Positions 2,346 through 63,705 of a DNA stretch of 64,000 bases are shown here, one piece after another (within the stretch, counting starts at the first letter, position 1; each line of letters begins with the position of its first letter). The translations under genes were made by a program, and so were the position numbers. Origin of the DNA: Thunnus maccoyii (taxonomy: Eukaryota > Chordata > Actinopteri > Scombriformes > Scombridae); assembly GCF_910596095.1 (NCBI RefSeq), contig NC_056550.1, positions 5,914,501 to 5,978,500 of the forward strand. Reading direction: 5' to 3'. Under the pieces are notes generated by a model that saw nothing but the letters and a program-made list of their open reading frames with translations, was not told the DNA's origin and made no database searches.

Positions 2346-5300
2346 TTTTCTATGTCACTGGATTTCAGCTAATTTGGTGGCATGAGTTATAAATTATTGT
2401 ATGTAATTGTGACTCATTCATGCATTAATTAAGCATATTTTTGAACCCTTATTATAAAGTGTTACTGAATTGGCAATAAATTTAGTTCCGTTTCTTCTCG
2501 AGCATTCGTGCATAATGAATTTTACTTTGTTATAGTGATTTCTGAGACACAGAGTCATACTGGAAAAATACTTAAAAGCCCATTTGATTGGAAAGGTAAT
2601 ATTTGACTACAATAATCCTAAAATGATACATTGTTGACAGTAAATATAACAGCATTCCTTGTGGCCACAAAAAGAAAACACCAAATGTTGGTTTTACCCT
2701 TTCTAGCCCCATACACTATAAATCACGTACACATTCATTTTCTTCTTCTTCTTCTTCTTTTTTTTTTTTTTTTTAGATTTTTCATGGTTTTTTTCTGTAT
2801 CCCAGGCCACCACTGGTTGTCACATGGTTCATATGGTTTGAACCCATATGAATGAATTATAACTCTGAATTTCTGCAGCACACAAAATGTTCACTGAAGT
2901 CTTGATCTGAAGCAAGTTTGAGGTCCTTACAAGTTGATTTCCGTACTGCACAGAAATGAATGTGGCTGCCTAGAAGGAAGGAAAACATTAAAATAAATCT
3001 TAAAACTATGGTATGCTGTGCAAAACTCTTTTGGCACTCGTGTAAGGTAGCTGTGACCAGCAGTAAATGGGCTAAAACATGTAAAAGTACCAGTATGGTC
3101 TTGTGAAGGACAGCGACCTAAGAGGGTTCAACATGATCACAACTTATATATGCAGCCACCTGGAACAGACTTCCTCACTTGCCAAATATATGCCATGTTT
3201 AGCCTGGGCAAGCCTGGCTGCTCCGAGTTCGTGTGTGTGTATGTGCGTTGTCAGGTCTGTTACTGTGGTGCTCCTTTGGTCCTCTGCTGTTGTGCAGCAT
3301 GTGGCCCACAGATTAACGCTTTAAATGAGACTCTCTCCTGTTCTGAATGCCCCCTCTGTTTGCTTACAAGGCCCGGGTGAGACAGAGTGGAAGGATTTGA
3401 GAGGGTTTTTGTATCTCCTCCTATTCAGAGGGGGGCATCCTATTATGACTGAAAAGCTAAGGGAGGGCATGGTCACAAAGGGTTAAAACCTGAGAGTGTC
3501 TTTTTTTGGCATAATATGCGGAATTGGCTTTTTTTTTTTAAAGACATGTGGAAAACGGCTCCAAACAGATTTTAGTGTAAGACAGGTGCCAGCTCTGCCA
3601 TCTGCTTTCAGTTTTACCTCCCTCTCTGTCTGCTCTCAGCCGATCCCCTCCTCTCTCTACAATCCTGATTCATCCATCTCTCTCTCGCTCCTTTCCCCCT
3701 TTTCCACCAATCACGTCAGTTTGACACCCTCCCCATCATGTGCTGGCACACACCCTTTAGGTACCTGGAAGAAATTAAAAGTGGGGAGAAATCAAATCAA
3801 AGAGAAATGTATTAACTTCAGGTATGGCACCCAAAATACTGGGTATTAAATGTGTAAGTATATGCATGGATGGATTATAGAATAGGCCTACGGAGCGCAG
3901 GGTCAGCAGGTTCAGTGAGACTCTCTGTTTGAAGTGACTGTTCACAAGATTTAGTCTTTTAATGTTGGGTATCTGCCTTTTTCCCCCTATATTATGCAGT
4001 TGCACAGTGAATACTTAACCTACAGAAAAACTAATAAAGCAAACTCAGTGTTTGACACAGTAAAGCCCTGCTAAGAAAATAAAACTTGCACCAAAGGTTT
4101 GGACAAGATGGCTCCCTTTAATGTTCTGTGTGCATCTGTGCTCAATTTTTTTTGTCTTCAACATGAACAGAATATTGAAGTTTAAGCGCCGTTTTCAACC
4201 AACATGGTTACAGTTGCAAAATGTTGAATTTTACACTGTAAAAAAAAATACAGTTTAATGTTATTTATAGGCTCCACTATTGTAGAACTAATCTGAGTAA
4301 AACCTATGTCTCAGTATCACCATCATGTGATGCAAATTAGTTGAAGGGTCACTTGCTCATTAATTTTGGTTTTGTCCAGTCTTATGTGATTATTGACTTA
4401 AAGTATTCAGATAGGTTTTTTATGGTGTTTAAAAAAGGGAACCAGATCTGCTCTTGGTAAAAAAAGAGTTTTTCATATATCCATCAACAAGCATAGATAT
4501 GGGGCATAGTTACATGTACACTGGAAATGTGGAAATTATCAGGTTATCCATGTTATAAAAAATGGTTAAACGAGATGCTTTTTATCATTAAATATGGACT
4601 CTGAAACACAGAAAAATGTTTCTGTCGTTTGACTTTTCTATTCCTACTTTCTATTTTGGGATATTCACATCAGTGTATTTACCTTTCATCCATTGAATAA
4701 ATACATGCTTTTTAATGGGGACTTTTTTTTAATTAATTTATTTTTTTGAATGGTTTTTGTATTTCCTTTAATTGTGTCCATCTTCTTTTGTCTCATTGTG
4801 ATTCTATTATGTTTTTCCTCTTGATTTGTGAAATGGAACAAAACAAACTGTTTCCTTGGGTGTAAGTAACATTTTAAATACAAAAATACAGCTTTGTTAT
4901 ATTGTTATTAGCTCACATGGTGAAAAAGTCTTTTTTTTTTATTTCACTGTGACTTTAACACATGTAATGTTCCATTTCAACTCACCTTTGAGGACACTCA
5001 CAACAGAATGTGCAAAAAAAATTAAAGCTGATTCATACTGTTGGGAAAAGAAAAACTTCCAAAATGTTGCTGCATTGTACAGGAGGGCGGTCCTTTTACA
5101 TGTCTGTGCCTAGGGGCCAACTGTCTCATAGTCCGTCCCCGCACACACACAAGCACCACCTGTGCATACATAAAGGTATGCATGTAACGGCAAAACCTTC
5201 CCGCGTCCCTTCACTGTATTTTATTAGGAAACGTAGAGCGAGCAGAGACAGCAGCTGCCAGATCCTGGAAAGCTTTAGGACATTAAAATGATGCTGCATA

Positions 5301-39419: not shown

Positions 39420-39952
39420 GTTATATTTAATTTTATTTTCCACTGAAAACCTTCAGCACAATGGCCAAAAGGACAGAAAACACGAGATATACAAGATGAT
39501 AAATGTATTTTATTTAAACTTTATTTACACATAAATACAGACAGATCTTGGATTTTATGCGTCAAACTTTCACAAATAAATTTACATTTCACAAAGATAT
39601 AAAATTAGATGAACTTAGATACATTCCTCTAATACTGAAAATTAAAAAAAACAAACACACAAACTTCCTCTATCTTAAAGTCACATTGATAAATTCTCCC
39701 ATCTGGTTAAATGATCAAATGAAGTATCATTCTTGAGGAGAAACAACCTGTTTGACAATATTAACTTGAAGGCAGTCAGTGTGATGTCTCAGCTGTGAGA
39801 GTGAACCTGGCATTGGAGATGTGTATCAATAATATTCAGCTATCTGCACATATCGGCACATATTGCAGGAAGATCGAGCCGTTGCTCAGTAGAGTGTAAT
39901 ACACTGTTGTGTCCCAAACAAGGTTCAGCGCCAGAAAAGGTTCAACATCATT
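39420..39952. repeat. Duplicated block, copy 1 (partner 63,200-63,705)
   Basis: Shared words in the same order and orientation include TTTATTTTCCACTGA, AACCTTCAGCACAATGGC, ACTTTATTTACACAT, ACAGACAGATCT, GCACATATTGCAGGAAGATC and CAAGGTTCAGCGCCAGAAAA. The match ends abruptly after GGTTCAACATCA. A TTTATT on + (AATAAA on -) fits a 3' end of something transcribed leftward. Confidence 0.85.
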
Positions 39953-45084: not shown

Positions 45085-45480
45085 CACTGTAAAAAATAAT
45101 CCGTAAATTTTACGGTGAAAATCTGGCAGCTGAGTCGCCAGAATTTCTCCGTAAATTTTACGGTGAAAATCTGGCACCTGAGTTGCCAGACTTTTACTGT
45201 AAAAAATACAGAATAAATCTGCATCTCGGTTACAGAACTTAACCGCGATAAATACAGTGAAAGGACGTCTGTTATTTTAACGGTGAAAAACTGGCAGCTG
45301 AGTTGCCAGAATTTTACTGTAAAAAATACAGTAGAAATCTGCCGCTTGTTTACAGCACTTAATTGTAATAAGTACGGTGAAGGCACTAACAATATTTTAA
45401 TGGTGGAAAACTGGGAGCTGGGTTGCCAAAATATTACCGTAATAAATACAGCTTACCCACGTGTGCCATTTTGGCAGAAT
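45085..45480. repeat. Subterminal repeats of copy B, left
   Basis: Four hits of CTGGCAGCTGAGTTGCCAG or close variants (near 45,123, 45,171, 45,291 and 45,411), each itself a short hairpin, alternate with TTTACGGTGAAAA and TACTGTAAAAAATACAG. In plant En/Spm such subterminal words bind the accessory protein; here that is inference. Confidence 0.75.
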
Positions 45481-45499
45481 AAATGTTGATGTCACACTG

Positions 45500-46020
45500 T
45501 AAAACCCGATAAGTTAATATAACTTAAAATAATTGTTGAAACAGATTACATCGAAAATTTTAAGTGATAATTATTCCATTTTCTAAGTTAAAGAAACATA
45601 CTTGTTCAAGTAGTTTTTACTAAGTAATTTCTAGTGACACATACTCAATATTTTAAGTTACATAAACTTTCTTACTTACATCATTATTACTCAGTATTTT
45701 GTTTTCAGACTACTAATAAAAATCAAGTATAGCTAACCGTAAAATTTTTGTTACTTAACCAGAAAATGTTTAATTTCTTGGTAAAGCTATTTTCACTTTA
45801 TGTGAACTTAACTTGTTTAAGTTCAACAAAGTTGTACAATCCTCCCTATACTTAAATATTTCACTTGAAATTTTAACTCAAAATTCCATGTGAAGCAACT
45901 TAATTTTTTTTTGAAACTGATTACATCAATTTTATTAAGTAGATTTGACTAAAAAATACAAACATATTTTGAGTAAACATTAAAAACACATTAACACAGA
46001 TGATTCAAATGCAAGTTACT
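45500..46020. repeat. Copy A left subterminal ACTTAA-rich zone
   Basis: Many short words of the type TTTTAAGT, AAGTTAC and ACTTAACTT recur, without a long frame. A smaller set lies near the right end (about 52,260-52,420). This is the layout of CACTA subterminal regions. Confidence 0.6.
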
Positions 46021-46623
46021 ATTTTATTTAGTAACCAAAAACATTTTACACTGAAATTAGCACGATAACACCTTCAAAAACAGTGCAGGGGCCTTTGGGA
46101 AATTACTTTTTTCCCCAAACTATAGAAGTGGACAATATGTATATACTCCTATAATGGTACATGCCAATTTTTATCATGATATTAATATACAATCGTGGCA
46201 AGTTAAAAACATTTTTGTACGTTTCCTGACAAGGAAAGGCAATTGATACCAAAATTATCCAAATATTGCCATAAACCGTTCTGTTCACCAATTTTTCAGT
46301 TTGCTTATAATGGCCGCATATTAAAAAGAGTTACATGACAATGAATATTAAGGCAATATCTCTGCTGGTTGACAACTTTCACGTTATACATCAATATCTT
46401 GCCCTATACGCTTCCATTCAGTGCAAAAACAGGAACAGTAACATTGAACAATAGTGCAAGGGCCTAACAAAATGGCCTGACAAAAGAACCACATAGTGGA
46501 CAACCGCATGGTATGGGATCTTACCAGTACAGAATGAGTTTTCTTGAACATTAACACATTCAAAATTGAACAATAAAAATCTTTGAAAAACACATCTCTA
46601 AGATGTTTTAAAACAGGAACAAA

Positions 46624-46932
46624 CTACTCCACTGCCAAAAGTTCATTTTTGAGGCTCAAGACCCTGGGTCCCATGTTTCCATCCTCCAGACCCATCAAGA
46701 CTTTCTGAGTGAAGTCAAAAGTATTTGCCATGTCTTTTGGGTAATTCAGATGCAGTGCATAAATCAGTGCGAAAAGCACTACAAATGCGTCAGCGAATGT
46801 GGGAAAATCAATGACTGTTTTACCCTCGAGCACGACCGCAACCTTCTCTGGGCAGAGGTACATGGCATCTGAAGTGGCACTGATCAAGAGCCCAACCGGT
46901 AAGTCACCAATGTCTGGTTCAGACTGCGCCAC
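46624..46932 (-). pseudogene. SAMD3-like terminal exon, copy A
   Basis: The exon follows a CTGCAG acceptor and encodes about 102 residues to a TAG. It includes VAQSEPDIGDLPVGLL, then FALIYALHLNYPKDM, then QKVLMGLEDG and GPRVLSLKNELL. The last parts align with the end of the copy B protein (NIHYPVELRSTLEFLQR, PRVLTLISDL). No other exon of this gene is visible between it and the transposase gene, where 46,940-48,120 holds no leftward frame of note. It is therefore a remnant, unless far exons splice to it. Confidence 0.65.
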
Positions 46933-46939
46933 CTGCAGA

Positions 46940-48128
46940 CAACAACAGAAGGGTTACCTTAGGCCCTAGACTCCCTCAGCTATTTCTAAAGGGTGATTGC
47001 TGAAAAATATATCAGTGGCTTATCAGAAGACAAATAGCAGTAAAAAAAAAAAAATTACAATCTATGAATGTGATTTGATTCACCATATGTAACATAAAAT
47101 AAAAAATAAGCAATTAATCTTTTAGGGGCGAGTGTACATTTTGTTGACACATGGCATAGCAACTATGGCATTTATTAAGATAAACCTGAAACTTGGTAAT
47201 ATTACCATTGCTTCAAGGGCAGGATTTCAGCATTACAAAAAAAAGGTAGCACTATGGAATTTCCATGGTACTGTTTATTTTCATGTAACTATAGATTTGA
47301 CTAATTTACACTGGAGTTTGCAGTCCAAGTGACAACAGTGAGAAATGGCCACTTAATATTTAAGCATACTGAAGCAAACTGAAGCTTGGAATAGATCATG
47401 AAATTGTATATTTTGGAGAGTATGAATGATTCAGGCAAACAGAAATTGGGCTAGAACCAGTTATTAAGTTATCAAAATTATCAATATCCATACAATATGG
47501 TAAATTTGAATGGCATGTACTCAGAATTGTTTTCTCCAAGATGTGGATTTTCATTCATTCACACAGTGGCAGAGGCATTATTTTTGATTAATAAAATGAA
47601 TAGACATTTATTAATCATGTTCAGTCCAGTTATTTATTATACCTCATTCCAGTCTACAAATCTTTGAATGTGTACTGTGATCGTAACCTTAACCCCCAAG
47701 AAAAACATAACATTAATTAAAGCAGGATTTATTGCATATGGAAACATCGTAATTTCAAAGACACCCATGATTGAAAAGCATATTCAACACATGCCTGTTT
47801 TCTGATTTGTGTCCATTCTATTCATATGACTATAATTTTAATGGTAATATTCAAACTCTGAAATTTTTCAACTTGTATAATCAGTGATTTACTGGATTAG
47901 AGTAACAAAGAAATTTGACTCTTTGATCAAAATAAATATACTGACTTACATCGATTGAAGGGAACCATCCAGTTTGATAACATATAATCATGATGTTGTT
48001 CAAAAGAAATGCCAGAAATGTACTTCAAATTTTCATTTTAGAATGAAAAAAAATATTGTTTTTGATGAGTATCATTAACTTCAAACGCCTGCCGTTTGCA
48101 ATAAACAAAACAATCTGTTCAGTTAGTC
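46940..48128. other. Copy A interior without a gene
   Basis: AT-rich. This is where upstream exons of a SAMD3-like gene would be expected by comparison with copy B, but none is recognisable. Confidence 0.5.
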
Positions 48129-48134
48129 TTTATT
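48129..48134 (-). terminator. Poly(A) signal of copy A transposase
   Basis: AATAAA on the - strand about 100 bases past the stop codon of the 898-residue frame. Confidence 0.6.
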
Positions 48135-48232
48135 GGCTTGTTGTGGTGGGCAGTGTCACTGGCACTGATTATTTCCAGCAGAGGGCAGATTATTTTCTCC
48201 ACTGTCTATAGATCCTCATTTCCAAATACATT

Positions 48233-50929
48233 TTAATCCTGCAAGTCTCTGATCAAAATAAATCTTTTCTGCGTTAACATCAAATGCCCATCAATATCAT
48301 ATGCCATGAGACTTACAGTGTCATTTAACTCTGACAGCTGAAGCACAGAGGTGTTGCCTGTTGATGTCAGCTCAAATGATCGTAAATGCTCACTGTACCA
48401 GCACTTGTAGTTCCTGCAAAGAAAGGAAACAGAGTTATCCACAAGCAGAACACGTTCAATTCTGCTGAAATTTGGAAGTCCTCCAGTCTGGTCTGCAGAC
48501 ACAAACATTCCATTTGCAAAATCTGTGCCATTTATGGAGACCTTTGAAGTACTATATATGTTTTGGCTTTCTGTCTTTGTCTCTATGAAGTCTTTGGCCA
48601 CTTGCGGCAGTGTGGCGATTTGGACAGAGGTGACACTTGAGGCTCGTGTGTGGGGTCTGAAAAACAATGGTGCACTGAGGTGATACGCCATCATGTGCTG
48701 ATGCCTGGTTGCAAGAGTTTTCAAGACATTCTTGAAATTCTGTGTGTCATGTATCACCCTTTTGAAAAAGCGATGTTTTCCCTCAAACCTCATGGTCCAT
48801 AAGTGAACCAGAGGCCCAAAACATCTTGTTAGTTCTGGGTAGTGCTCAAGGTAATGATGTTTGGGTCGGAGCTTAAAATCTGGAAACACTGCTTGAAGAC
48901 CCTGTCTGTGATCACTTATCTTAGTCTGCATGTACTGGATGGAATCTTCTGTGAAAGATGGGGAGAGTACTAGCTGCACGATTTCTTTCAGGTCCATCAA
49001 AATAGCCCAGGTTTCATCTCCTTCAGGAACTTTACTTCCCACCATAAGGGGCAATAACCTCAGCAAAGTGGAATTTTCATGTCCATTTCCACCAATGCTT
49101 AGTTTGGCCGTAAAATTCTTTGGGATTGGTTGTGGTTCATCAAGCCTATCAGAGTGCTGATATGGAAATGAACGTATTTTTGTGTTAAGATATTCAAGAG
49201 TGAAATACTTAAGACGAATCATTTCACGAATGCACAAGGCCAACTCAACTGGCACAATACCTTCAAAAAGGTCGTGAAGTATATCAGGTGGGAAACCAGA
49301 AATAGGATGAAAATGCTGTAGTGTCTTACTGAGAGTGCACTCAGCCTTTAGACCAAAATGAGATGCATTTTCTCCTTGCACAACATTCTGCACATGTACG
49401 TCATGGGAGGCCCTTGTTCTCATGCTAAACTCTCCTTCAGAAACTTCAGTGGACTGTATTTGGTCTGTAGTACAGCAACAAAATCTGCAGACATAGTGTC
49501 CCCTGAAACACTGCACAAAGCCTGCCAGACCATGGGCAGCCAAATTATCAGCAGCAACACACATGACAGTGCCCTTTACGCATTGGCCGACAGGTTCGAT
49601 AAAAATGCCATCCTGCTCAAGAGTATGCAAGTCTTTCAGCAAAGGTGAAAGAACACTTTCATAACCACAACTCTGCAGATCAGGTACTTTGCACAACAGA
49701 GCTAGTTGTATGATATGAAGGCTGGACCTATATATACTGGGCACATTGGCTAGCAACCAGTACACCGCACAAAGCTTGTGGATCTTTCTAGCTGTGCCTA
49801 AAGGATTAGCTAGTTCAATGTCATCCACATATAAAATCAGAGACAACTTAAGGTCTTCTGCCGCTGACAACAATTGATTTTCTTTGAAATACATTCCATC
49901 TTCATGAGACATGTACATTCCAGGTGGTGATGGTTTAGTTTCTTGAATCTTGTCAAGAAGATCTGTATTTTTAAACATTGTTTGAAGCATCTGTAGTATT
50001 GGAACATACACTGCTGTGTGTCCAAGGGAATCCACAGCATATTGCACTGGCATTACCAGAGGGTAGTGACTTCTTACAAATGTTTTCCTCCGTTTAGCAC
50101 TGGACAGCTCTGCACCTTCAGCAGTAGCACTGACAAAAACATTACTTTTCATGACAGCTTCCACCAATTCCTCAAGAAGGGCCTCATTGATAGACTGATC
50201 ATGCTCTCCTAAAACCTTGATGACAGAGTCTCTCACAAGGGGTTTGGACAACGTGAATATTTGTGCCAGATTTTCCACTATGTCTTGTATCGCTGTCTCT
50301 GACACATGCAGAACACTGTGCATTTTCAAGAACAAAGAAGCCAAATTTTTTCTCAGTTGAGTTTGCAATTCACCAGCGTCATATCCAGAGTCGGGAGGAT
50401 TACACTCTGGAGCTTCCAGCTCAAGAAAATTCTGAGACGGACCAGCCTCATCAGATTCAACTTGGTTCTGAATGGGTTGGCCGTCAGTTTCTGTCAAGAC
50501 AATTTCTGTCTTAAAATCTGAGAATTCACAGCCTAGATGATTCCTACTTTTGTGGGCATTAAAGGAGGAATACACATTAGTGCGGTACTGACAATTTTTG
50601 AATGGACAATCCACCATCTCGTGTTGTTTTAAATGCATCCTTAAATGACTGAGAAGAGTTTTGTCATTAAAAGGTTCTTTAAATTTACACACAGCACAGA
50701 CAAATGACACATATCCTTCTTGATTGTCACTTTGCACAAGCGTCTGAGTATGTAACCGGGTTAGGTGAATTTTCAATGCATTTACTGAATGAAATGTGCA
50801 GACACAGTTGTCATAGAGACAAGGCAATTGATTGACTGAGGAGACATTGCTATGATGTAAACGATAATGTTCAAGCAACTGTGCCTTTCTATCAAAGAGA
50901 GTAGCACAGAGTTTGCACCTCCAAGCCAT
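48233..50929 (-). CDS. C2H2-finger CACTA-like transposase, copy A, intact
   Basis: A single exon of 898 codons without stops or shifts. Four C2H2 fingers span residues 5-131 (C5-C8-H21-H25; C37-C42-H55-H60; C78-C81-H95-H99; C108-C113-H126-H131). An acidic linker follows to about 190. The core (about 285-780) has SLILYVDDIELANPLG (D369/D370), VCVAADNLAAHG (D461), GHYVCRFC (zinc-knuckle-like, 477-484), and ILHDLFEG (D553, E556). I propose D369 or D370, D461 and E556 as the DDE-type catalytic set; this is inference from order and spacing. A later block, RPKHHYLEHYP...FGPL...MRFEGKH, is shared with copy B. The C terminus (about 790-898) is a further conserved domain. CACTA-like terminal repeats around it support a transposase; it could also be a domesticated derivative. 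Nearest named family is EnSpm/CACTA, assigned with moderate confidence. Confidence 0.75.
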   Translation of the reverse strand: MAWRCKLCATLFDRKAQLLEHYRLHHSNVSSVNQLPCLYDNCVCTFHSVNALKIHLTRLHTQTLVQSDNQEGYVSFVCAVCKFKEPFNDKTLLSHLRMHLKQHEMVDCPFKNCQYRTNVYSSFNAHKSRNHLGCEFSDFKTEIVLTETDGQPIQNQVESDEAGPSQNFLELEAPECNPPDSGYDAGELQTQLRKNLASLFLKMHSVLHVSETAIQDIVENLAQIFTLSKPLVRDSVIKVLGEHDQSINEALLEELVEAVMKSNVFVSATAEGAELSSAKRRKTFVRSHYPLVMPVQYAVDSLGHTAVYVPILQMLQTMFKNTDLLDKIQETKPSPPGMYMSHEDGMYFKENQLLSAAEDLKLSLILYVDDIELANPLGTARKIHKLCAVYWLLANVPSIYRSSLHIIQLALLCKVPDLQSCGYESVLSPLLKDLHTLEQDGIFIEPVGQCVKGTVMCVAADNLAAHGLAGFVQCFRGHYVCRFCCCTTDQIQSTEVSEGEFSMRTRASHDVHVQNVVQGENASHFGLKAECTLSKTLQHFHPISGFPPDILHDLFEGIVPVELALCIREMIRLKYFTLEYLNTKIRSFPYQHSDRLDEPQPIPKNFTAKLSIGGNGHENSTLLRLLPLMVGSKVPEGDETWAILMDLKEIVQLVLSPSFTEDSIQYMQTKISDHRQGLQAVFPDFKLRPKHHYLEHYPELTRCFGPLVHLWTMRFEGKHRFFKRVIHDTQNFKNVLKTLATRHQHMMAYHLSAPLFFRPHTRASSVTSVQIATLPQVAKDFIETKTESQNIYSTSKVSINGTDFANGMFVSADQTGGLPNFSRIERVLLVDNSVSFLCRNYKCWYSEHLRSFELTSTGNTSVLQLSELNDTVSLMAYDIDGHLMLTQKRFILIRDLQD

Positions 50930-51012
50930 TGGAAACCAAAATTCTATTTACAACTCTAATATTTAGAGTGAGAACTGGTACGAGCAGAGCATTATAAACA
51001 TACCAGATTGAA

Positions 51013-51062
51013 GAATCTGGTATCTGTATCTCAGCCAGTCTTTTGTTGCTTCAATTTCAACC
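51013..51062 (-). other. Possible leader exon of copy A gene
   Basis: The block lies between a TTCAG acceptor and a CTG|GTATGT donor on the - strand and reads VEIEATKDWLRYRYQ in one frame. Together with the exon at 52,163-52,205 it could form a spliced leader for the 898-codon gene. Which frame, if any, is coding is not settled. Confidence 0.35.
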
Positions 51063-52162
51063 TGAAGAGAGAAGAGATTGAAAAGTGAGATAGGCTGCAA
51101 TCTTTTTACAAAACCAGAGCAAAGTAATAGAGAAGCATTGAATAATTGTCAGTTACCTTACATTACAGAAATTACATGAAATATGGTGTTTCAGACTTTA
51201 ATATACAAAACCCAAGGACACCCGAAAAACACTTTCATAGGAAAAAAAAATACAAATGGTTAGAACGGTCCTTTTATCACCAAATAAATATAACAAACAA
51301 AAGTCTATACTGGCTCTTAAGTTTAGCAGGCAAATAAGGATGTTGGGTGTTTTTCTTTTTACTTATTATGTTTTCGTCAACACTGCTAATCTTTGGACGT
51401 CAGGTTACTGCACAAACCCTGGACACTGTGCCCTGACCTTGACCATGAGAGTGTTATTTCACACACAAATCACAAGACTAATTTTTTTTAATGATCTCTC
51501 CTTACTAAAATACATGACGTGTAGTAAAACGTTCCAGCATTACATCGGGGCAAAAACTGAATGCAAACCATTGCCTTTACTGAAACTTGCCAAAACTTGC
51601 CCGATTAAAATGGGGTCGCATGCCGCCAATTTCTGGTTGAGAAAAGAACCAGAAAACTTAAAAAGCCTGCACAAATAAATTAATGCATCACAAACGGTCC
51701 GCCTCAACGGGAAACATTAGAATAACTATTATTGTTGTGTACTCTAATAATTAACGTTAACTTTCAGTGTTTTCAACGTTTTAATTGCCTTTCACTCTTT
51801 AATTAGGCAGATATGGTTAACAGTTTTTTCAAATGCATGAAGTAACTCTAAGACACGCCAAATATTAGTTACGTTAATTAAACCCGACAAAACACGTAAC
51901 TAAACTAACGAATAAAATATTAAGGCAACCACGGAAAACCATATGACCGCTTTCATTGCAGCCAGCATGGTAACAGTTAAAGTTAGCAACAATTAGCTGG
52001 TCAGGTCGAGAAACTTGCTGCATGCCACAGCACGTTTCGCTTAAAATATCGTCACAAGCAGTCCCACAGCAAGTTTACCAATCTCTCTTTCTTTCGCTTT
52101 AGGCTCTAAATATATCTAAAGAACTCACATGCAAAAAACGTTTAAGCAAACTTCTTACCTGT

Positions 52163-52215
52163 GCACTGCAGGGATGTAGCAGCAGTAATGGCGGACATTT
52201 CCACTTTGGCGAAGA
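52163..52215 (-). other. Possible first exon of copy A transcript
   Basis: A GC-richer block ends in GTGCACAG|GTAAGA, a strong donor, on the - strand about 230 bp inside the right terminal repeat. It fits a first, mostly untranslated exon. A short ATG frame inside does not continue in frame into the next candidate exon. Confidence 0.4.
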
Positions 52216-52233
52216 GGCACGTACGCACGTGCG

Positions 52234-52241
52234 TGACGTCA
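52234..52241. promoter_or_regulatory. CRE palindrome TGACGTCA
   Basis: A perfect cAMP response element in a CpG-bearing stretch (GTACGCACGTGCGTGACGTC) just upstream of the likely first exon of copy A. It suggests a promoter; use is unproven. Confidence 0.4.
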
Positions 52242-52433
52242 CGCGGATTAAGTGATTACTATCAAATTATTTGAGTACAATATATCAAAATCATTAAAGT
52301 GGTTAAGTACTGTACACTTAAAATTAAAAATTCGTTGAAATAACTCAAACATTTTGCCTTGTAATAGCTGTTTTTAATTTAATAATACAACTCATCATTT
52401 TTAATAAGCTTATACTGTTCGGTTTTACAGTGT

Positions 52434-52800
52434 GTAGTCGGCCATATCTGAAATCAGTAACAAATTTTAACGCTCTTTTCAATATCAGCAACTCTGTAAC
52501 CTAAAACAATAGTAAGTACTCTATACATTTATTTTAAACATGTCAGTATTCTCTCTCCTCTCATTAACCATAGTGTCGGCACTATTTCCATTATATTTCC
52601 AATATTTCCATCTATAGTCAGCCAGATCGGAAACAGACTCAGTAACAGTAACAAATCATTAACAGACATACCATATCAGCAAAAACTGTAACGTTAAACA
52701 ACAGGAACTGCCCTAGGCATCTCTTTGAAACATGTCGATAGGCTACTCTATTTCCACTCATAGTCGGCCAGGTCTGAAATCAATGTTAGCACTCTGGGAT
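52434..52800. repeat. Tandem copies of the copy B gene end
   Basis: TAGTCGGCCA(T/G)(A/G)TCTGAAATCA starts at about 52,436 and 52,763, with a third, diverged version (TAGTCAGCCAGATCGGAAAC) at 52,616. The 52,763 copy is the coding end (ISDLADYEWK on -). The spacing is about 150-180 bp. They look like tandem duplications of the last exon's 3' part. Confidence 0.7.
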
Positions 52801-54849
52801 TGACTGGGAGCACTTTCTTCTGTTTTCTCCATTCAACCTTTGTTCCTCTTTCCGGGTTTATGGCGAAGAAGCACCTTAAGTAAAACAAATGTGCACGTTT
52901 TACATAACTTTAGAGGGTAAATAATAAAGGATAAGGATAGAGTATGACCATCTATTGTTACAATGTAAAATGACAAAATTACCTCTGGAGAAACTCCAGT
53001 GTGGAGCGGAGCTCCACTGGGTAATGAATGTTGAAAACGTAGTAGCTCCCAAACATCAGACAGACAGCCAACATGAAAGAAGTGATGTGGTCATTGACCA
53101 CCTCCTGGTCAATGGACAGCATGTACGTCTGGGCTGCAAAACAGGAGGACCCTAAAATGACAAGTACAAAGAACAAAACAAACAGCCAATAACAAAAGAG
53201 TTAAACTGTGGTTCACATTAAGAAACCTGTGATGCCTCCTGTAAACCCACCCACCCCTCCAACATGATGGCAGCAGACTGAACAACCTCCATACCTGGAC
53301 TAGCAGGCACACATTAGAGACACATTAATCCACCAAACCCCACGCAAACATTGGACTCAAATCATCCACTGAACCCCACCCCCTATCCCCAAGTCATTTC
53401 AGTACAACAGGAACAAATCAATTCAGTACACCAGCATTCAGTACACCTTGAGGGTTTAGGCAAACTTACCACACACAATGATACAGGGGTTTGGTGGAAG
53501 CCTCTGCAGTTCAATCTCATGGGCCAGACAAGTATCATCAACGAAATGGAAAAGGCTTTCTTCCTTCTCAGTGAAACGGGTCATCAGAAGGATAAACATC
53601 TCAATGATCTCTGTGCACCTGCCTGATGGCCCTTTTGCAGCATGGCATTTCATCAGCACATCCTGGACCTTTTTGTTTTTTGGTGCAATCACATGTCTGA
53701 AGAATTCCAGAAGACGTCTGCCCTTTCTTTCCACATTTCCAATGAAGGTGCCGATGAGACTAAGACCAGTCAATTCTTCAAAGTGTGCAGCCATGCCAGG
53801 CTCTTTAAACAGAAAAGGCCACTCTTGACGAAGGTGCTTTAAGGTCACTCCTTTGTTGATGTCTCCTCTTTGGGAGAAGTAAGTTGCCACAACCAACTTT
53901 TTGATCTCCTCTGCATTGTAATGCATGTCCTCGTGCATCTTCTTCATTTGTTCTTTCTTAATCTTCTGAGACTCCACAGTTTCAGTCACTGGCATAAACT
54001 TTGGATCCCACTTCACACACCCATAGGTGTCCTGCACAGTTGCTCGTTGGCTTGGTGTGACTTCATCTGTGTCCTCTTCCTCAGTGTCTTGTTTACGTCT
54101 TTTTATTTTTGGCGTGTCTGGTCTTTTTACGTTCTCCACCTGAGTCTGTAGCTGCTTGGCAATCGAGTCATATCCAGAACCAACGACGTCACCATCAATG
54201 ACGTCTTGGAGAGACTTTGGGTACTTCGCCACCATCCTCTTAGCAATCTGTGTCATGTTCTGTTTGGTAGGATTGTTGCACACCTTGATTACAGCTGCTA
54301 CAACAACCCTGATCATTTCACGTCTAAGTTTTGGGGAAGGCCTTTTCTGTCTTGCCAGAAATTGCATGAGCTCTTCAGGGAGTTTAGCCCAAGGAATTTC
54401 AAACTTCTCAATCCAGTTGACTGAAGAGGATGGTGTGTTGCATGTTGAGGACAAAGATGTCACAGAAGAAGTGGGCGATGGGGAGGAAGATATGGCTGGG
54501 CAGTGGAGATGCACACACTGAGGACAAAGGTGGTGTGACAGACTCTGTAATTAGACAAAGGAAACATTTGTCCACTTTTCAACACAAAATGATGCTGGTT
54601 TTGTGAAGTCAATGGTGAGGAAAGTTAGCTTTAATACTTAGTATTTTTAGCCCAGGTAACAAGTCTCCTGGCTTGAACTGGTTTTAGTGTGGGCAACAAA
54701 TCAACTTCAGTTATATAGTGGAGGTCATCCAAAGTCTCTACACCCACCGCTTTGAGAGCATCCATCACTGAACTTAGAATGTCTTCAGAGTAATCTGGAA
54801 ATACTGTAGCAATGGTCCTTCTGATCATTTCAGTCTGGGATTCTGACAT
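52748..54849 (-). CDS. SAMD3-like protein, copy B
   Basis: Four exons join in phase: 54,849-54,638 (from an ATG just after an acceptor), 54,542-53,470, 53,151-52,983 and 52,874-52,748, giving about 526 residues ending at a TAG. Exon 1 is a SAM domain (FPDYSEDILSSVMDALKAVG, then LDDLHYITEVDLLPTL and RRLVTWA), a fold that often forms oligomers. Exon 2 has WIEKFEIPWAKLPEEL, RREMIRVVVAAVIKVCNNP and GDVVGSGYDSIAKQLQTQVE, which recur in fish proteins listed as sterile alpha motif domain-containing protein 3-like, plus a basic KIKRRK nuclear signal candidate. The exon 2 acceptor uses the second of two adjacent AGs to keep frame. A leftward AATAAA (52,528-52,533) follows. An extra upstream exon is possible. 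The role in transposition is inferred from its repeated pairing with the transposase-like gene. Confidence 0.65.
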
Positions 54850-55575
54850 TTCTGTCACAAACAAAAACAATTTGGGCTGTGTTACATTCACAATTCTATG
54901 CAAACAATCACCATTCTATGCAAACAAGCACCTTGCATTTGCTTTTAACTGTATCAAAACAAAAGTGTCTTAGCAAAATCATGTAGGGGTTTTTTTGGCA
55001 TGGGCATGAGTACATTTTTCATGAAACAGCAAAACTATGACAGAAGCTGGCTTTTACGTTTGGTAAAAATGGCAAGAACATTGACCATCATCCTGTTATT
55101 TGAATCCGTCTTGGCCTATATTTCTGCCTCGAGAGGAAAATTCCTGATTGGTACATCACTACAATTTCTGTTTCACATTTATATTGACAATATGCTGTGC
55201 CTCAATGGGACAATCTGGTGTCCATCTTTGATGTAGGATGACAATGGCCAAGCATCTAGGAGGTCATTAATGTGAAAGCATTGCAATTTTTCACTTGGGT
55301 TTTTTACAGAGTACATGCGGTAGTGTGGCAAAAATTCTGTGGCATGTAGTCTCAATAGAAAATGAACAGCAGTGTCATCCTTCGCTATGACCTGAATGAG
55401 TTCACCAAATTGAACCAAATCATCATTCCTAGTGACAACAAATTGACCCCTCTTGTAAGTTATCCCTTTGTACTGAACATCTGCTGTGATCTTAGCATTT
55501 GTCTCTGTGAAACCAAACTGCACCACTGCACTGTTAATTTGTTCAGAGTAAAACTCAGAACAAAACGGTGAACAG

Positions 55576-57531
55576 TGTTGGGCCTCAAACCATGAGGTCA
55601 CACAAAGAAGGCCTACATGTAACCTGTGAGGCCTGACCACGAGGTGCTTTATTCCTTTGTTTTCCCCGAGACAAAGAAATAGCGCCAAAAATGCTGCTTA
55701 GACAATGGGAGTCCATTGCGAACTCCATTTCCAAGGATGTTTTGCGATTTTCACACCTCAGCAGGGAGCAGTCAACATACAGTCTCATTGGCGGAGACGC
55801 TCCTGCACAGCGGAGCGTCCTGATCATGCAGCCATGACATCACCGCCCCTTTAAAAACTGAACGTGCCCTGAAGTACATGCCCTTCCCATGTCACTGAGC
55901 TAGGGGTAACTCCTGTTCCTCTGTGAGTCAGCTGACTAAAGGGGGTATCCCACGCACGTGTTTTCCCCTCATCGAAGACTCCCCTCGCCGGACGAGACGA
56001 GACTTCGCCCGTGTTCACCCGAACACATTCCCGGATCCGAGAGAGACCGCTGCTGCAACTAGCATCCTCAATTTCCTCGAGACGGAAGAAATGCTTCTTC
56101 ACCGAGTCGACTCTGCTGTTCTCTCCGCCACGCCGCCGAGAGCCAGCTGCCGTGCTTTTCGCCGACCGTGCGAGAACGGCCACCGTCTGCATCCGAGCCC
56201 AGGACAAAGCCGGACATAACGACGGATTACACACACACCCTGCTCGCTTTCTGAAGTGACCCAAGTAAGAGGCATAAGTCTGGGCAGAGGCAGTGTTAAT
56301 TGTGTGTTCTTATCAGCATCAGTTGCTGTTGTATAGCATTTAGCTTTTGCTTTATTGCTATTGTTTTGTTGTGCTGTTGACGGACCGCCGAGTCCATTTC
56401 TCCTGTTTTACTCTTAGGAGTATTTTAAGTTTGCTGCCTGTTTAGTTGTGTTCACCACGCTAGACTGTTTTGTGTTTGTCCCGCTCGGGACTACTGCTGT
56501 GTTTGTGCCATTGTGAGTGAGGAAGTAAGTTGCTTTGTCGATCAGAAACCAGACAACGTGCGTTACATACTGCCGTCCGTACACACGCTGTCTGTGGACA
56601 AAGCTTCTCTTCCTCTCACGATCGCTCTCTCCTTCTTCCTTCTCTCTTCTGACTAACACATACACGCGCGCGCACACACATACACGCACCGACATCTTTT
56701 GCACATCTGATGGTCAGATAACGTCGGACAAAGCTTCGCTTTGTCTTTCCTTATCCGCCATCAGACGTGTGTTTTTCACAGAAGTGGGTGAGTGCGAGAC
56801 GCCGTCCATTAGGCGGTGCCGTCTTGCTTCTGTCTAACCAAGACACCGCCACATTTCTGCCATCCGGTTCTCGCGCGACGTGACTTCCTCCCGTAGTCAC
56901 GTCCGCGTCGCAGACCGACGACGTCATCACGTCAGGCCCCGTCGCCATCTTGTCACACACACGCTCACACACACACGCGCGCACGCACGCACATGCATTA
57001 CCCTGCATGTGTCCAACCCTGTACATAGCTGTTGTGTTTGTTTGGTAGGATTAGATTTTAGAATAGTCGTTTATTGAATGAAGCATTTGTTAACTTTGTT
57101 AATTTTGCTAAGTTTAATAAACACTGTTATATCTTTAAAGAGAAGTTCTTCTGTCATTATTGTGTGTAATATTGTGAAAAGTGGCTGATTGAAGGAGTCA
57201 GAGCTCGAATTCACCCTTTTTTGTTCATCCTTGAATGTTGATATCTCTCAGATATTAACATTCTGGTTCTGGTTTGGTTATTGGTCCCGGTTTCCGGGTG
57301 GTGCCCCGTATTTGTTAATTCATATTAATAATTCTATTAATTGTCATAATTAGTTAATTATCCTTGATAATTGATAATTATTGCAAATAATCAACTGTGT
57401 TCCTCACAGATCCAACAGTTGGTGCCGAATTGTTGATTAAGGTTAACAATATCTTATTTTCATAATTCATAATTATCTATGATAATTATGAATTATTGCT
57501 AATAACCAACGCACTACTGCCCGTCCCAACA
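55576..57531 (+). mobile_element. Solo LTR in the copy B transposase gene
   Basis: It begins TGTTGGG and ends CCCAACA, a 7-bp inverted repeat with TG...CA ends. The 4-bp duplication ACAG flanks it (55,572-55,575 and 57,532-57,535). Removing it with one ACAG restores an open transposase frame. A TATA-like TTTAAAAA near 55,850 and AATAAA at 57,116-57,121 support + orientation. No gag, pol or env is present, as expected after recombination between two LTRs. The class (Gypsy, BEL or ERV) is not assigned. Confidence 0.9.
57300..57531. repeat. ~115-bp tandem duplication at the LTR end
   Basis: Two diverged units start GGTGCCCCGTATTTGTTAAT (about 57,300) and GGTGCCGAATTGTTGATTAA (about 57,421). Both pass through TAATTATTGC(A/T)AATAA and end in CCAACA. 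Confidence 0.65.
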
Positions 57532-59949
57532 ACAGTCCTTCATTTGCAAATCTTGAGGACCAACAGATCCAGCTGTAAGGTAAGCCTGTAACAACTGATG
57601 TTGGTTTGAAAGGGTGAGAGGCAGGTTTTTAAAATTCTTCAATTGTCTTGCACATCTTTTGAAGTAGCTATGCTTACTTTCAAAGCGCATAGCCCAGACC
57701 TTAATCAATGGGCCAAAATTTAGCATCAACCCTGGATAGTGGCGCAAGTAGTGATGTTTGGGTCTCAAGTTGGTTTCAGGAAATAGTGTCTCCCGAGAGT
57801 CCATGTATTCCTGAATGAGAGCATCAAGGTAAGCAACCTGCGATCTTGAGATGCTCTGAGCACATGTGAAGTCAACTATGTCCTTCAATTGTAGGGTCAA
57901 TTGCCATACATCGTCCTGTGGATCTTGTACTCTGTCTCCAATGATCAGAGGCAAAAATCTCAAGAAGTTCCAATTCTGTATGGCATGACCGGACAGTTTC
58001 TGTGTTTTAGGATTGACTTCACATGGCTTGGAGGAGGCATCTGTGTTTTTGAATTGGAACTGTTTAATCCGCCTGTTCAATTGAGGGTATGTGAACCATT
58101 TTCTTTTTTTCACAAAGTACTTCAGATACAGTGCCACGTCAGGAGAGGACACCCTCAAAGACATCATGTCTTAGACAAGGAGGCAAGCCAGGAAGACACA
58201 CATTATAGTGTTGCAAAGAATTGAAAACTGACCTGAATTTTATCCCTTGCACTTCCACGTTGCCGGTCATCTGAATCTGGTCCACTGCAGAAGAATAATT
58301 TTTGGGTGTTCGTAGGACAGCAGACAAAGTGCAGTCAGTCTGAAATTCAGAATGAGAAATTAGACAGTATCTGCAAAAATGTTCTGATGAGCTTAAGTTT
58401 TCAGTGAACTCTCCAATGCAATGTGAGCCAAGATTGTCTCCAACAATGCAGTAGAGAGTTCCTTTCAAAACAGATTCATCAGCTGTTATCCCACTCTCCT
58501 CTAACATTTTCAAGTCAGATACCAACTCAGAGAAAACTTTGGCATGGCCAAATTCTGTAAAATCCTTTTCTCTACAGAGTAGCACCAGCTGCATGTGGTC
58601 GACGGTTGATCGCATATGGGGGGGCAAATTTAGTAGGGAGAAATACACAGCCAGAAGTTTGTGTCTCCTTTTAGCTGAACCCAAGGGGTTCACAACCTCA
58701 AAGGCATCTTGGTACAAAATCAACTTAAGGCAAGCTGGAAAATCCTGAAAGAAAGTGTTCGATTTAAACACCTTGCCATCACAGCAATCACTGAGAATGT
58801 CTGGAGAATTTTCTGGAGGATTTTCTGACATCAGTCCCTTCCAAAACCCTGATGTGAGCATATTCTTCAGTGTCTCCAAGATTGGAACATAGTAGGCAAA
58901 TCGCTTCTCTCTGTTTTCATCTCTGCCCAAAAACAGTTGCTTGGGCTCCACAAAGTTAAACATTTCTCTAAAACACTTAGTCCTAGAGTAGGCTGTTCTC
59001 ATTGGGCCAGTGTGGCAAGCTGAGAACAAGTCTGATTCCTTCACAGCATCACATACTTTTCCTCTGACTTCGTCTGATACCAGTGTTTGCAGAAGTACAT
59101 TTAGCCTGCTCAATGTATGTGTCTGCCCCAACTCATGAATGTTCTGCATCTCTTCCACTATGATCTGGATAGTAGAGGTTGGAACTAAATATTGCCCTTG
59201 TAACTTTGCGTAGAACAAACACACATTTCTGAGATACAGATCCTCAAAACCACTGTGTTCTAAAGTGTCTTCATTATCCGACAGACAGCCTGGTTGCTCT
59301 GTAGTTACAGTGGTGCTTGTGGAGGGACACGAGTCAACAAAATGTGTTGACCTACCGCTACCACATGAGCTGCTGATGACATTGACAGGGCAGTCCCTGT
59401 GCCTTCTAGACATATGGGCAGTGAAGGTAGATTTTACAGTGAACACCATTTTACGTCCTGCCACTGGGCAGTTCACTGGACATCCCCCATCTATGTGCTC
59501 CTTTAGATGTGCAACCAACCCTTTCACGCTATCACAGTGGCACTCACAAAGTGAAACTGCATTTCAAGGATTCCATAGTGAAGCCTTGTGAAGACACTGA
59601 TTTGCCAGTATGATGGCGATAGCAGTGAGCCTTTAAGGAGACATATTTGGCAAACACACGCTTACAACCAACTTCAACACATTTGAAAACTATGCGGGGT
59701 TCATTGCGATGCAGTTGGCAATGCAAAACATACGCCTTCAATGACTCAAGAGACAAACCACAAATGCAACATGAATAGGACATAGTGAAGTCATTAATGA
59801 AAACAACATTAGCCTATCTGAACTATTTATTCACCTTGCCTTAGTTGCTCTTTGCTGGCAGCAGCATGGCTATTCTCATATTACAGCCCATATACTCATA
59901 TAGGCTACAGTCCTCTCAAATCTGAGGGGGAAAAACGTACAATTCACTC

Positions 59950-61060
59950 TCCAAACAAAATAAAAAGTAATGCAATATTTGGGAAGATGCAATAGTAACT
60001 TCACAGCAATGCAATCATTTTCTGCCTCAAATTTAACTGAGGGGAAAAAAACTTACAATTCACTCCCCCAAACAAAAGAAAAGGTAATGCAATATTTGGG
60101 AAAATGCAATACTAGCTTCACAACTTCACAATCATTTTCTGCCTCAAATTTAGCTGAAATTTAACGGACCCTCCCCCAACCGCATGCACAGAAACTAGCA
60201 ACTAGCATATGTAACTATTTTGCACTTTGCTGTCTGCAGGAAGGCTATTTTCATAACAGCACTCTCTAATAAAAAATCTGAGCAAAAAAACTTTTAATTT
60301 ACTCCAAACAAAATAAAAATTAAGCAAATGTCGGACAGATGGAATAACTCCACAGCAATAATATCTATTTCTACCTCACAGAACCTACTACGCATTCAGA
60401 CAGAACACTTCTAGTATGAGACTGGAAAGCGTGGGGAAAACGAGCTAGGAAAAAGCCCCTCTCCCAACCGCTAATCAACCCAACTGAGTTCTCAACGCAA
60501 ACGCCACCTTTACATATCTACTCAACAACATTTAGCAAGGTCTCACCAGTCGGCGAATATGCCATTCAGTGCATTCAGTGGAGAAAATAAACCAGGCAGA
60601 GTTAACTTCTTGGCGGCGAAACAGAAATCCTGCTGTCTCCACCACTCAATAAACCGCAAAACAGTAACCCAAGCAAGCTGCTAGTTAGCTGCACTTTGCA
60701 GGCAACAGCGAAGCTAATACTCTCCCCACTCAGTGATAACAACCCTCGCTGATAAAAATAACAAAAAAGAGTCACACCTGCTCCAAACATATGGAAGCCT
60801 ATACTTATGTTGGGGATAACTCCACAGCAATGTTATCTACCGGTATTTCTGCCTCACACTTAACCTAGCTGCTACTCTGCATGTCGAAAATGTGTGTTCG
60901 GTTAGAATAATCCACAAGTACGAGAGGACAGCGAGGCCAAAAAGCAAGCAAGCATGCCTCCCCAGAAACTTTTCACCGCGCCACTTTTACGTTAACATTC
61001 CATAACACAGTTGAGCAATGTCTTACCAGTCGGCGAAATCTCCCAAATGCAGAAAATAAA
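59950..61060. repeat. Subterminal tandem array of copy B, right
   Basis: Units with GCAATATTTGGGAAGATGCA and TCATTTTCTGCCTCAAATTT at 59,968 and 60,089 recur in diverged form near 60,322 and 60,800. ACCAGTCGGCGAA with a following AGAAAATAAACC occurs at 60,546 and 61,027. The array lies just upstream of the copy B transposase gene, where its promoter is expected. Confidence 0.7.
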
Positions 61061-61590
61061 CCTGCAACATAAAAACGGACTGTGTTAAAACCCAAATAGT
61101 GGAAATAGCCTACTCTATCCACCACTCAGTAACCAAGCAAAAGCGTTGGCTAATGAAATCGGATATCGTTTCGGTGCACAGGATGGATTAGCAATTCTCA
61201 ATCAAAGCGAGATTTCGATTAGGACGTTACTAAGCATGCAGATAAAAACAAACGTGATTGACATTTCATGACCATCTCGGTTACACTTGAAGTTGCAGGT
61301 CTAATCGAAGCATAAGCTTAATACAGTTGTAAAGTAATGTTTTCATCAACACATGGCCAAAAATCTACATGCTAAGCACTTGTCATTAGGCAGCAAATTT
61401 AGCTAGTAATCTGTAAACACGAGACGCGTCTAAATATTACACCACTCATTAATAACTTCGATTAGAATGAACTCTTCAATGTGTTGAATTGACATTTTCA
61501 TATGTTTTATGATTTCACCAATCATGACGACATACCTTACCTTGTGCAGAGCTCGATTTCGTCCAAGTGTGTGCAGAGGCTTTCTGGTCT
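60530..61590 (-). promoter_or_regulatory. Multiple candidate first-exon donors
   Basis: On the - strand, CGCCGACTG|GTGAGA (near 60,545), CGCCGACTG|GTAAGA (near 61,026) and GCACAAG|GTAAGG (near 61,541) are donor-like sites in duplicated context. They could be alternative first exons for the copy B genes. No transcript evidence is available. Confidence 0.35.
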
Positions 61591-61806
61591 TGCCCCAGAA
61601 GATGAATAGATTCAAAACCAGGAAGATGAATATATTCAAAATTCATTGATTCAATAGGCCTGCAAATAGGCCTGTTTGGCCAGGGTGATCATAGATATAC
61701 CACCGTCCATGAGGGTGATGCCTAAAGGATAACACATCCATCCGTTCATCCATCCATAGCTCTTTCACACACTCATTAATTGATCATTAATATGCTGAGT
61801 AGTGCA

Positions 61807-61810
<4 letters not shown>

Positions 61811-61838
<28 letters not shown>
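61811..61838. repeat. GT microsatellite
   Basis: Fourteen uninterrupted GT units close to the right end of copy B. Confidence 0.95.
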
Positions 61839-62283
61839 TAATTAAGCCTTTGTGTTTGTTTTATAGCTTATAGGGTCTTATTGACTTTTTAATGGGTACA
61901 TTTTGTATTTATTATGGAAGAGTGTTCTACCGTTTCAAAAACTGTGTTCAACCTTTTTTTGATTTACAGTTTTGGACTGTTGCAGTTTCACAGTTTTCCA
62001 CTGTGAAATCTATGGATATTTTTTACCGTGGCCTGCTCCATGGCAGGCTTATGGTCAAGCTTAACTCAGCTGCATGTCAAAGAATGTCCGACAGACAGAA
62101 ACAGACTCTCAAAAGATGGTTCCATCATGTCTTTTCGCACTCGCAACTCTTATTTAAAAGCTTAGCATTTATCATTTAAGAAATCAAAGTGTGCCAGCAT
62201 TATTTTGAAATGATTTATTTATTAATTCAAAAGAAAATTAAATAAAGCCCAAACTATGACCTTCTGCTGTGTTTAAATGTATA

Positions 62284-63199: not shown

Positions 63200-63705
63200 T
63201 GTTTTGTCATTCTTTTATTTTCCACTGACAACCTTCAGCACAATGGCAAATAGGAAAGGTTACATCAAGTTGTCTATTTACAACATGACATGTTTATTTT
63301 ATTGACCTCATTTCAACTTTATTTACACATTACACACAGACAGATCTGGGATTTTATATGTCAGTATTTAGAAAAAAAAAAAGCATCTCCATTTCTGAAG
63401 AATATCAAGTTATTCTAACTTGGATACACTGCTGTGATTCTGAAAAACAAACAAGGAAAACTTCACACGCCACAAAAACCAAGTAGCCTGTGCGTAAAGA
63501 TGTTCCCGCGGGTTTTACGCACGGACAATGTGCAGGTTTGTGTAGGTGATCAAGAGTTCAAAGTCCAGCACAACATACATCAGTGAGTACATAACACAAT
63601 GTGAGAGGCACATATTGCAGGAAGATCGAGCCATTGCTCAGTAGAGTGTAATACACTGTTGTGTCCTCAAACAAGGTTCAGCGCCAGAAAAGGTTCAACA
63701 TCAAA
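63200..63705. repeat. Duplicated block, copy 2 (partner 39,420-39,952)
   Basis: Direct, partly gapped repeat of the block 24 kb upstream. It ends at the same point (GGTTCAACATCA, then AAGTTCACTC here against TTGGCGCAGA there). The sequence after it, to 64,000, shows no gene. Confidence 0.85.

What the first reader, a model, noticed from the sequence alone, without database searches (positions are those of the whole stretch)
45085..62030. Two copies of a two-gene transposon: finger transposase plus SAMD3-like partner
Both copies carry, in the same order and strand, a four-finger C2H2 protein with a DDE-like core and a SAMD3-like gene, between CACTG-type inverted ends. Plant En/Spm also needs two proteins (TNPA and TNPD). 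A SAM-domain accessory protein in an animal CACTA-like element would be a parallel, perhaps undescribed, arrangement. The repeated pairing is seen; the shared function is inferred.
Basis: partly seen in the sequence, partly recalled or inferred. Interest (0 to 1): 0.8.

Follow-up and report, generated by a model that had tools for sequence, protein, structure and literature searches.

The report
Nested two-gene fish DNA transposons
In a tuna-like fish genome, one jumping DNA element sits inside a distant relative, and such elements usually carry a cutting enzyme shaped like the antibody-gene recombinase RAG1 followed by the same kind of partner protein, which points to a two-protein transposition machine.

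Summary
Partly confirmed, and it extends beyond the window. The two elements are nested: an inner 6.9-kb element (45495-52432) lies inside an outer, decayed one (45085-62030). They are different families (transposases 29-38% identical). Both encode a four-finger C2H2 transposase followed, on the same strand, by a SAMD3-like gene; in the inner copy only its last exon remains.

In the window's own genome the pairing is the rule. Eighteen near-identical 7.3-kb copies of a third family all carry both genes, CACTG ends and a perfect 2-bp target duplication. A transposase lies upstream on the same strand of 47 of 54 SAMD3-like loci found.

It is CACTA/En-Spm-like, but the 2-bp duplication is not En/Spm's 3 bp. 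Two-protein animal CACTA-like elements were already known (SmTRC1, 2006); nine searches of an open-access library listed no report of this partner. The partner's function (TNPA-like, end-binding or oligomerising) is inferred.

The parts
45085..62030 (-). Outer, older, decayed element (lineage B, SAM-type partner), interrupted by the inner element and by a solo-LTR-like insert
   Evidence: Terminal inverted repeats align over 41 columns, score 40 vs shuffle maximum 26 of 2000; both gene remnants inside; flanks TA / GC, no duplication
45085..45125 (.). Outer left terminal inverted repeat, CACTGTAAAAAATAATCCG...
61991..62030 (.). Outer right terminal inverted repeat, ...TTTTTTACCGTG
45495..52432 (-). 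Inner, young element (lineage A) nested in the outer one; 98.8-99.8% identical in blastn blocks to three longer copies elsewhere in the genome
   Evidence: ends defined by comparison with copies on C4, C22 and C6, each flanked by TA/TA
45495..45533 (.). Inner left inverted end, CACTGTAAAACCCGATAAG...
52394..52432 (.). Inner right inverted end, ...CGGTTTTACAGTG
48233..50929 (-). Inner transposase, intact 898-aa ORF: four C2H2 fingers, RAG1-like DDE core (model residues 187-754; D368, D460, C480/C483, H690-H695, E715), BAH-like C-terminal domain (758-884)
46627..46932 (-). Inner SAMD3-like (PB1-type) partner: only the last exon remains
   Evidence: 99% identical (one change) to the last 102 residues of gene model P0242, which the C4, C22 and C6 copies match at 100%; acceptor CAG at its start
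48311..48316 (-). Possible splice donor GTAAGT inside the transposase C-terminus; the T. albacares gene model P0242 splices here to the partner's first exon
   Evidence: no RNA data
47950..47950 (.). Junction (approximate) of the about 1.62-kb deletion that removed most of the inner partner gene
   Evidence: blastn against the C6 copy: positions 5112 and 6733 are adjacent in the window copy
57532..59783 (-). Outer transposase, N-terminal and core part, with frameshifts
   Evidence: tblastn with inner transposase, E 2e-77; ORFs; N-terminal finger part read by eye from the sequence
55179..55575 (-). Outer transposase, C-terminal part, separated by the solo-LTR-like insert
   Evidence: ORF; resembles by eye the C-terminus of the 18-copy family protein
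54649..54849 (-). Outer partner gene, SAM-domain exon; a splice-acceptor-like GTTTGTGACAG stands directly before AAATG
   Evidence: tblastn with P0122, 73% identity
53468..54493 (-). Outer partner gene, main exon
   Evidence: tblastn with P0122, 75% identity; T. albacares P0121 100% identical over 85% of the ORF
52751..53164 (-). Outer partner gene, C-terminal exons
   Evidence: tblastn with P0122; C18:5967473-5967664 and 5967251-5967385

Best explanation
Both elements are cut-and-paste DNA transposons of the CACTA/En-Spm-Mirage-Chapaev-Transib (CMCT) kind that carry two genes: a C2H2-RAG1-like-BAH transposase and, downstream on the same strand, a SAMD3-like partner. SHOWN by computation: the pairing, the ends, the 2-bp target duplication in intact copies, the DDE-type signature, the predicted RAG1-like and BAH-like folds, and the homology of the SAM-type and PB1-type partner bodies. 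INFERRED: the fingers and the partner recognise terminal and subterminal repeats; the partner's SAM-like or PB1-like module (both kinds often self-associate, recalled) helps gather the two ends or tunes element transcription; the RAG1-like core cuts and joins at YR (mostly TA) dinucleotides; the BAH-like domain steers to a chromatin state. Splicing from one transcription unit, as in En/Spm, probably separates the two products. Likelihoods: two-gene transposon about 0.95; partner needed for or regulating transposition about 0.6; specifically TNPA-like end binding about 0.35.
Against: No transposition assay, transcript or protein data. The inner window copy lacks most of the partner gene. Seven of 54 partner loci have no transposase in the stretch examined, and 13 of 47 transposase loci have no partner listed near them (not fetched). 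Genome counts are lower bounds, as the tool scores only its best candidates. Subterminal repeats stand out in the 18-copy and outer families but the same motif is absent from the inner family, so no common binding site is shown. Between recently diverged copies dN/dS is about 0.46-0.6 for the partner and 1-2 for the transposase, on few differences, so short-term constraint is weak or absent. Splicing is read from gene models and consensus sites only.
Confidence: 0.7

Rival explanations
1. The SAMD3-like gene is a passenger: a host gene fragment captured once by an ancestral element and carried along without a role in transposition.
For: No functional data. Partner function unknown. Weak short-term constraint between recent copies. 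The inner window copy has lost most of it, and 13 of 47 transposase loci have none listed.
Against: Kept in the same place and order in two lineages whose transposases share about 33% identity and in gene models of 7 fish genera; 47 SAM-type sequences align with 52% mean column identity and 39 invariant columns; between families pN is less than half of pS; the N-terminal domain differs while the body is kept.
Confidence: 0.2
2. The partner is mainly a regulator (repressor or de-silencer) rather than part of the cutting complex, acting in part through proteins in which the fingers are joined to the partner body.
For: Three of three internal-deletion derivatives that removed the catalytic core (C1, C21, C6) join the fingers in frame to the partner body, giving ORFs of 445, 470 and 410 aa; if junctions were random and independent, all three in frame has a probability of 1/27. 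A T. albacares gene model joins transposase to partner. SAM domains are common in transcription repressors (recalled).
Against: Only three cases, from one family; the derivatives may be ordinary non-autonomous copies. No expression data.
Confidence: 0.35
3. The SAMD3-like gene is a cellular host gene beside which transposons happened to insert.
For: Vertebrates have a host gene named SAMD3 (recalled), and a source gives a sterile-alpha-motif name to at least one of these proteins (P0247).
Against: 54 loci in one genome, 47 with an upstream same-strand transposase, 18 of them inside elements with perfect ends and duplications.
Confidence: 0.02

Closest known systems
Plant En/Spm (CACTA; TNPA and TNPD)
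   Same: CAC...GTG ends, a large DDE transposase plus a second element-encoded protein from one unit (two-protein need and alternative splicing as described in PMC1636069, passages); subterminal repeats in at least two of three families here
   Different: 2-bp instead of 3-bp duplication; partner is a SAM/PB1 SAMD3-like protein; four C2H2 fingers and a BAH-like domain on the transposase; Pfam tnp2 only below cut-off
SmTRC1 / animal TRC CACTA elements (Schistosoma; PMC1636069)
   Same: Animal CACTA-like element with 2-bp duplication, tandem ORFs and alternative splicing giving further proteins (passages)
   Different: TIR core CCC rather than CAC; its TNPA-like proteins had no detected relatives; no SAM/PB1 partner in the passages seen
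Plavaka, ESTA and EnSpm of the CMCT clade in fungi (PMC12730594)
   Same: D, D, C(2)C, H(3-4)H, E motif set; ESTA has TA duplications; PF18759 Plavaka is precomputed for 4 of the 120 listed relatives and scored E 1.5e-5 for one of them here; accessory genes (TET/JBP) known there
   Different: Plavaka termini TGT..ACA or CATCA..TGATG, not CAC..GTG; accessory is a dioxygenase; score here below Pfam cut-off
RAG1/RAG2, ProtoRAG, Transib
   Different: 2-bp duplication (Transib and RAG 5 bp, recalled); partner not compared with RAG2 by sequence; 8-13% identity
Vertebrate host gene SAMD3
   Same: Name of that kind given by a source to one relative
   Different: Relationship not tested here

Membership tests
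CMCT clade (CACTA/EnSpm-Mirage-Chapaev-Transib) | D, D, C(2)C, H(3-4)H, E in order | tested here: met
   D368 58/58, D460 58/58, C480/C483 57/58, H690 and H691 58/58, H695 57/58, E715 58/58; motif definition from PMC12730594 (passages)
CMCT clade (CACTA/EnSpm-Mirage-Chapaev-Transib) | CA...TG termini and 2-5 bp target duplication | tested here: met
   CACTG...CAGTG with 2 bp in 18 of 18 and 3 of 3 copies; the two window copies have the ends but no visible duplication
CMCT clade (CACTA/EnSpm-Mirage-Chapaev-Transib) | RAG1/Transib-like RNase H core with helical insertion | tested here: met
   [not shown]
EnSpm/CACTA proper | CAC..GTG termini | tested here: met
EnSpm/CACTA proper | 3-bp target duplication | tested here: not met
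   2 bp in 18 of 18 (TA 14, TG 3, CA 1) and TA in 3 of 3; no 3-bp match in the 18
EnSpm/CACTA proper | Transposase_21 (PF02992) above Pfam cut-off | tested here: not met
   best 23.8 bits against 28.6 (P0081); window proteins E 0.04 or no hit; only a few of the relatives were scanned
Plavaka | PF18759 above cut-off and Plavaka termini | tested here: not met
   window proteins no hit; P0060 24.8 bits against 26.3, though one search shows PF18759 precomputed for 4 of 120 relatives; termini differ
SAM domain (SAM-type partner) | five-helix SAM fold | tested here: inconclusive
   [not shown]
PB1 domain (PB1-type partner) | PF00564 above cut-off | tested here: inconclusive
   18.8 bits against 23.6, E 0.0016 (P0242)
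BAH domain | BAH fold | tested here: met
   [not shown]
En/Spm-type two-protein system | second protein required for transposition | not testable with these tools
   needs a transposition assay

The most novel reading that the evidence does not exclude
Teleosts host an ancient, recently moving class of two-protein transposons whose transposase joins DNA-binding fingers, a RAG1-like recombinase and a histone-reading BAH module, and whose obligatory partner forms polymers through an exchangeable SAM or PB1 domain; the vertebrate gene SAMD3 is a domesticated descendant of that partner.
Probability: 0.2. Interest if true: 0.85.

Novelty: new variant of a known kind. Interest (0 to 1): 0.62.

Why it matters
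Animal CACTA-like elements are poorly understood, and no CACTA transposase was among the rows shown by the structure searches here. An 18-copy, near-identical family with an open transposase and partner makes the old question of why CACTA elements need a second protein testable in a vertebrate. It would also explain many fish genes named SAMD3-like as transposon genes, which matters for annotation and association studies, and it adds a RAG1-fold, two-gene relative with a BAH-like domain to the RAG family picture.
Full report
THE WINDOW. The window is G000:C18:5914501-5978500 of a 782-Mb assembly. A Thunnus albacares protein matches one window ORF at 100% over 85% of it, so the genome is a tuna or very near one (inference). 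Two CACTG-ended elements are present. The inner one runs from 45495 to 52432 and has an intact 898-aa transposase ORF at 48233-50929 on the minus strand. The outer one runs from 45085 to 62030; its terminal repeats align over 41 columns with score 40, against a maximum of 26 in 2000 shuffles. The inner one therefore lies inside the outer one. The two transposases are 28.7% and 38.2% identical over two stretches, so they belong to different families.

GENE PAIRS IN THE WINDOW. The outer element keeps a SAM-type SAMD3-like gene (54849 to 52751) directly after the end of its transposase. Its transposase is frameshifted and split by a 1956-bp insert that begins TG, ends CA and is flanked by ACAG. 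The inner element keeps only the last exon of its SAMD3-like gene (46627-46932). Against the copy on C6 it has lost about 1.62 kb near 47950 and about 0.24 kb near 51230, while copies on C4, C22 and C6 keep the gene; in C6 that gene has a frameshift. Neither window copy shows a target duplication.

THE GENOME TEST. A search with the inner transposase gave 60 matches, which I group by position into 47 loci. Four are near-identical inner-family copies and 18 are full-length copies of another family at 32-33% identity. Those 18 are identical over the 5.2 kb compared, apart from one difference in each of two copies. Each begins CACTGTAAAA, ends TTTTACAGTG and is flanked by a matching dinucleotide: TA in 14, TG in 3 and CA in 1; none matches at 3 bp. 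The element, measured in one copy, is 7324 bp; its transposase ORF is 882 aa, and the partner ATG follows 131 bp after the stop codon. All 18 carry the partner.

COUNTING BOTH WAYS. The tool scores only its best candidates, so counts are lower bounds. SAM-type partner loci: the matches group into 36 loci. Transposase lies upstream on the same strand in the 18 burst copies, in the outer window copy, and in 12 of the 17 others checked over 6 kb; one of the 12 is weak, at E 6e-6. The five without are C3:3599196, C11:27569354, C16:12704932, C11:10648878 and C10:33227035. No opposite-strand hit was seen in these 17, and none in 8 control chunks covering window 1-48000. PB1-type partner loci: the matches group into 18 loci, 16 with transposase upstream on the same strand; C22:24134706 and C11:28442628 had none in 2.4 kb. 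Together 47 of 54. From the transposase side, the 29 loci whose DNA came back all have partner sequence downstream: 28 in DNA held (the window copy with its last exon only), and L028 by position, with a partner match 2 kb downstream. Of the 18 lower-ranked loci, 5 have a partner (outer copy, C6:34180543, C3:486736, C17:29045476, C18:16005813). So 34 of 47. Even 1000 transposase copies would put one within 6 kb upstream of a random point less than 1% of the time (arithmetic).

OTHER FISH. The protein database is not a census. Using only the partner half of the Coilia protein P0049 as query among proteins of 766-2437 aa, one search listed 11 proteins, the query among them. Eight carry transposase residues upstream in the same gene model: P0049, P0070, P0242, P0243, P0244, P0245, P0247 and P0248 (7 of 10 without the query). 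P0241, P0246 and P0249 do not; P0241 and P0246 have other N-termini and P0249 has a reverse transcriptase. P0149 (Labeo) carries a transposase piece before a SAM-type partner. These are annotation models; they show adjacency, not proven fusion proteins.

HOW IT PROBABLY WORKS. Splice-acceptor-like sites stand just before the partner ATG in the C6 inner-family copy, the outer element and the 18-copy family, and the inner family has a GTAAGT donor inside the transposase end that a T. albacares gene model uses. A shared transcription unit, as described for maize Spm in PMC1636069 (passages), is the likely arrangement but has no RNA support here. TGTAAA is enriched near the ends of the 18-copy family (11 against a shuffle mean of 2.5, 0 of 300 shuffles reach it) and CTGTAAA in the outer one (4 against 0.23, 0 of 300), but both are absent from the inner family's ends, which carry other, less marked repeats; the motifs were chosen after looking. 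Three internal-deletion derivatives fuse the fingers in frame to the partner body, each with its own junction, as a repressor would need. I think the partner gathers ends or controls element expression; which of these is open.

NOVELTY. Two-protein, alternatively spliced, 2-bp-duplicating animal CACTA-like elements were described in Schistosoma in 2006 (PMC1636069, passages). Fish EnSpm families are named in print (PMC3485254, passages). Nine searches listed no paper whose title or abstract start describes a SAM/PB1 SAMD3-like partner or a BAH domain in such a transposase; most listed papers were not opened. Repbase entries could not be read here, and the transposase families may be listed there as EnSpm. 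Hence: a new variant of a known kind.

Noticed in passing
window 55576-57531: 1956-bp insert with TG...CA ends and flanking ACAG, shaped like a solo LTR, splitting the outer transposase.
   Followed up: partly
G000:C18:5992849-6000172 (about 14 kb beyond the window end): One of the 18 near-identical copies lies near the window; its left flank reads ttttacagtgta, so it sits next to another CAGTG end.
   Followed up: no
L009 (C1:14819370), L029 (C21:26873053), L074 (C6:34180543): Three internal-deletion derivatives with different junctions, each joining the finger region in frame to the partner body (ORFs 445, 470, 410 aa): possible repressors.
   Followed up: partly
[not shown]
   Followed up: partly
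P0241 (Coregonus), P0246 (Engraulis): Partner bodies attached to other N-termini without transposase, P0246 with a predicted coiled coil: possible exon capture by host genes.
   Followed up: no
window 16216-36542: Several diverged inverted and direct repeats (about 65-85% identity) among 16.2-20.1, 34.0-34.3 and 36.3-36.5 kb, some of them palindromic.
   Followed up: no
window 39855-39950 and 63607-63703: A 97-bp stretch repeated at 98% identity.
   Followed up: no
PMC8945855 (passages): A carp association study names a Samd3 gene; whether that is the host gene or one of these transposon genes was not tested.
   Followed up: no
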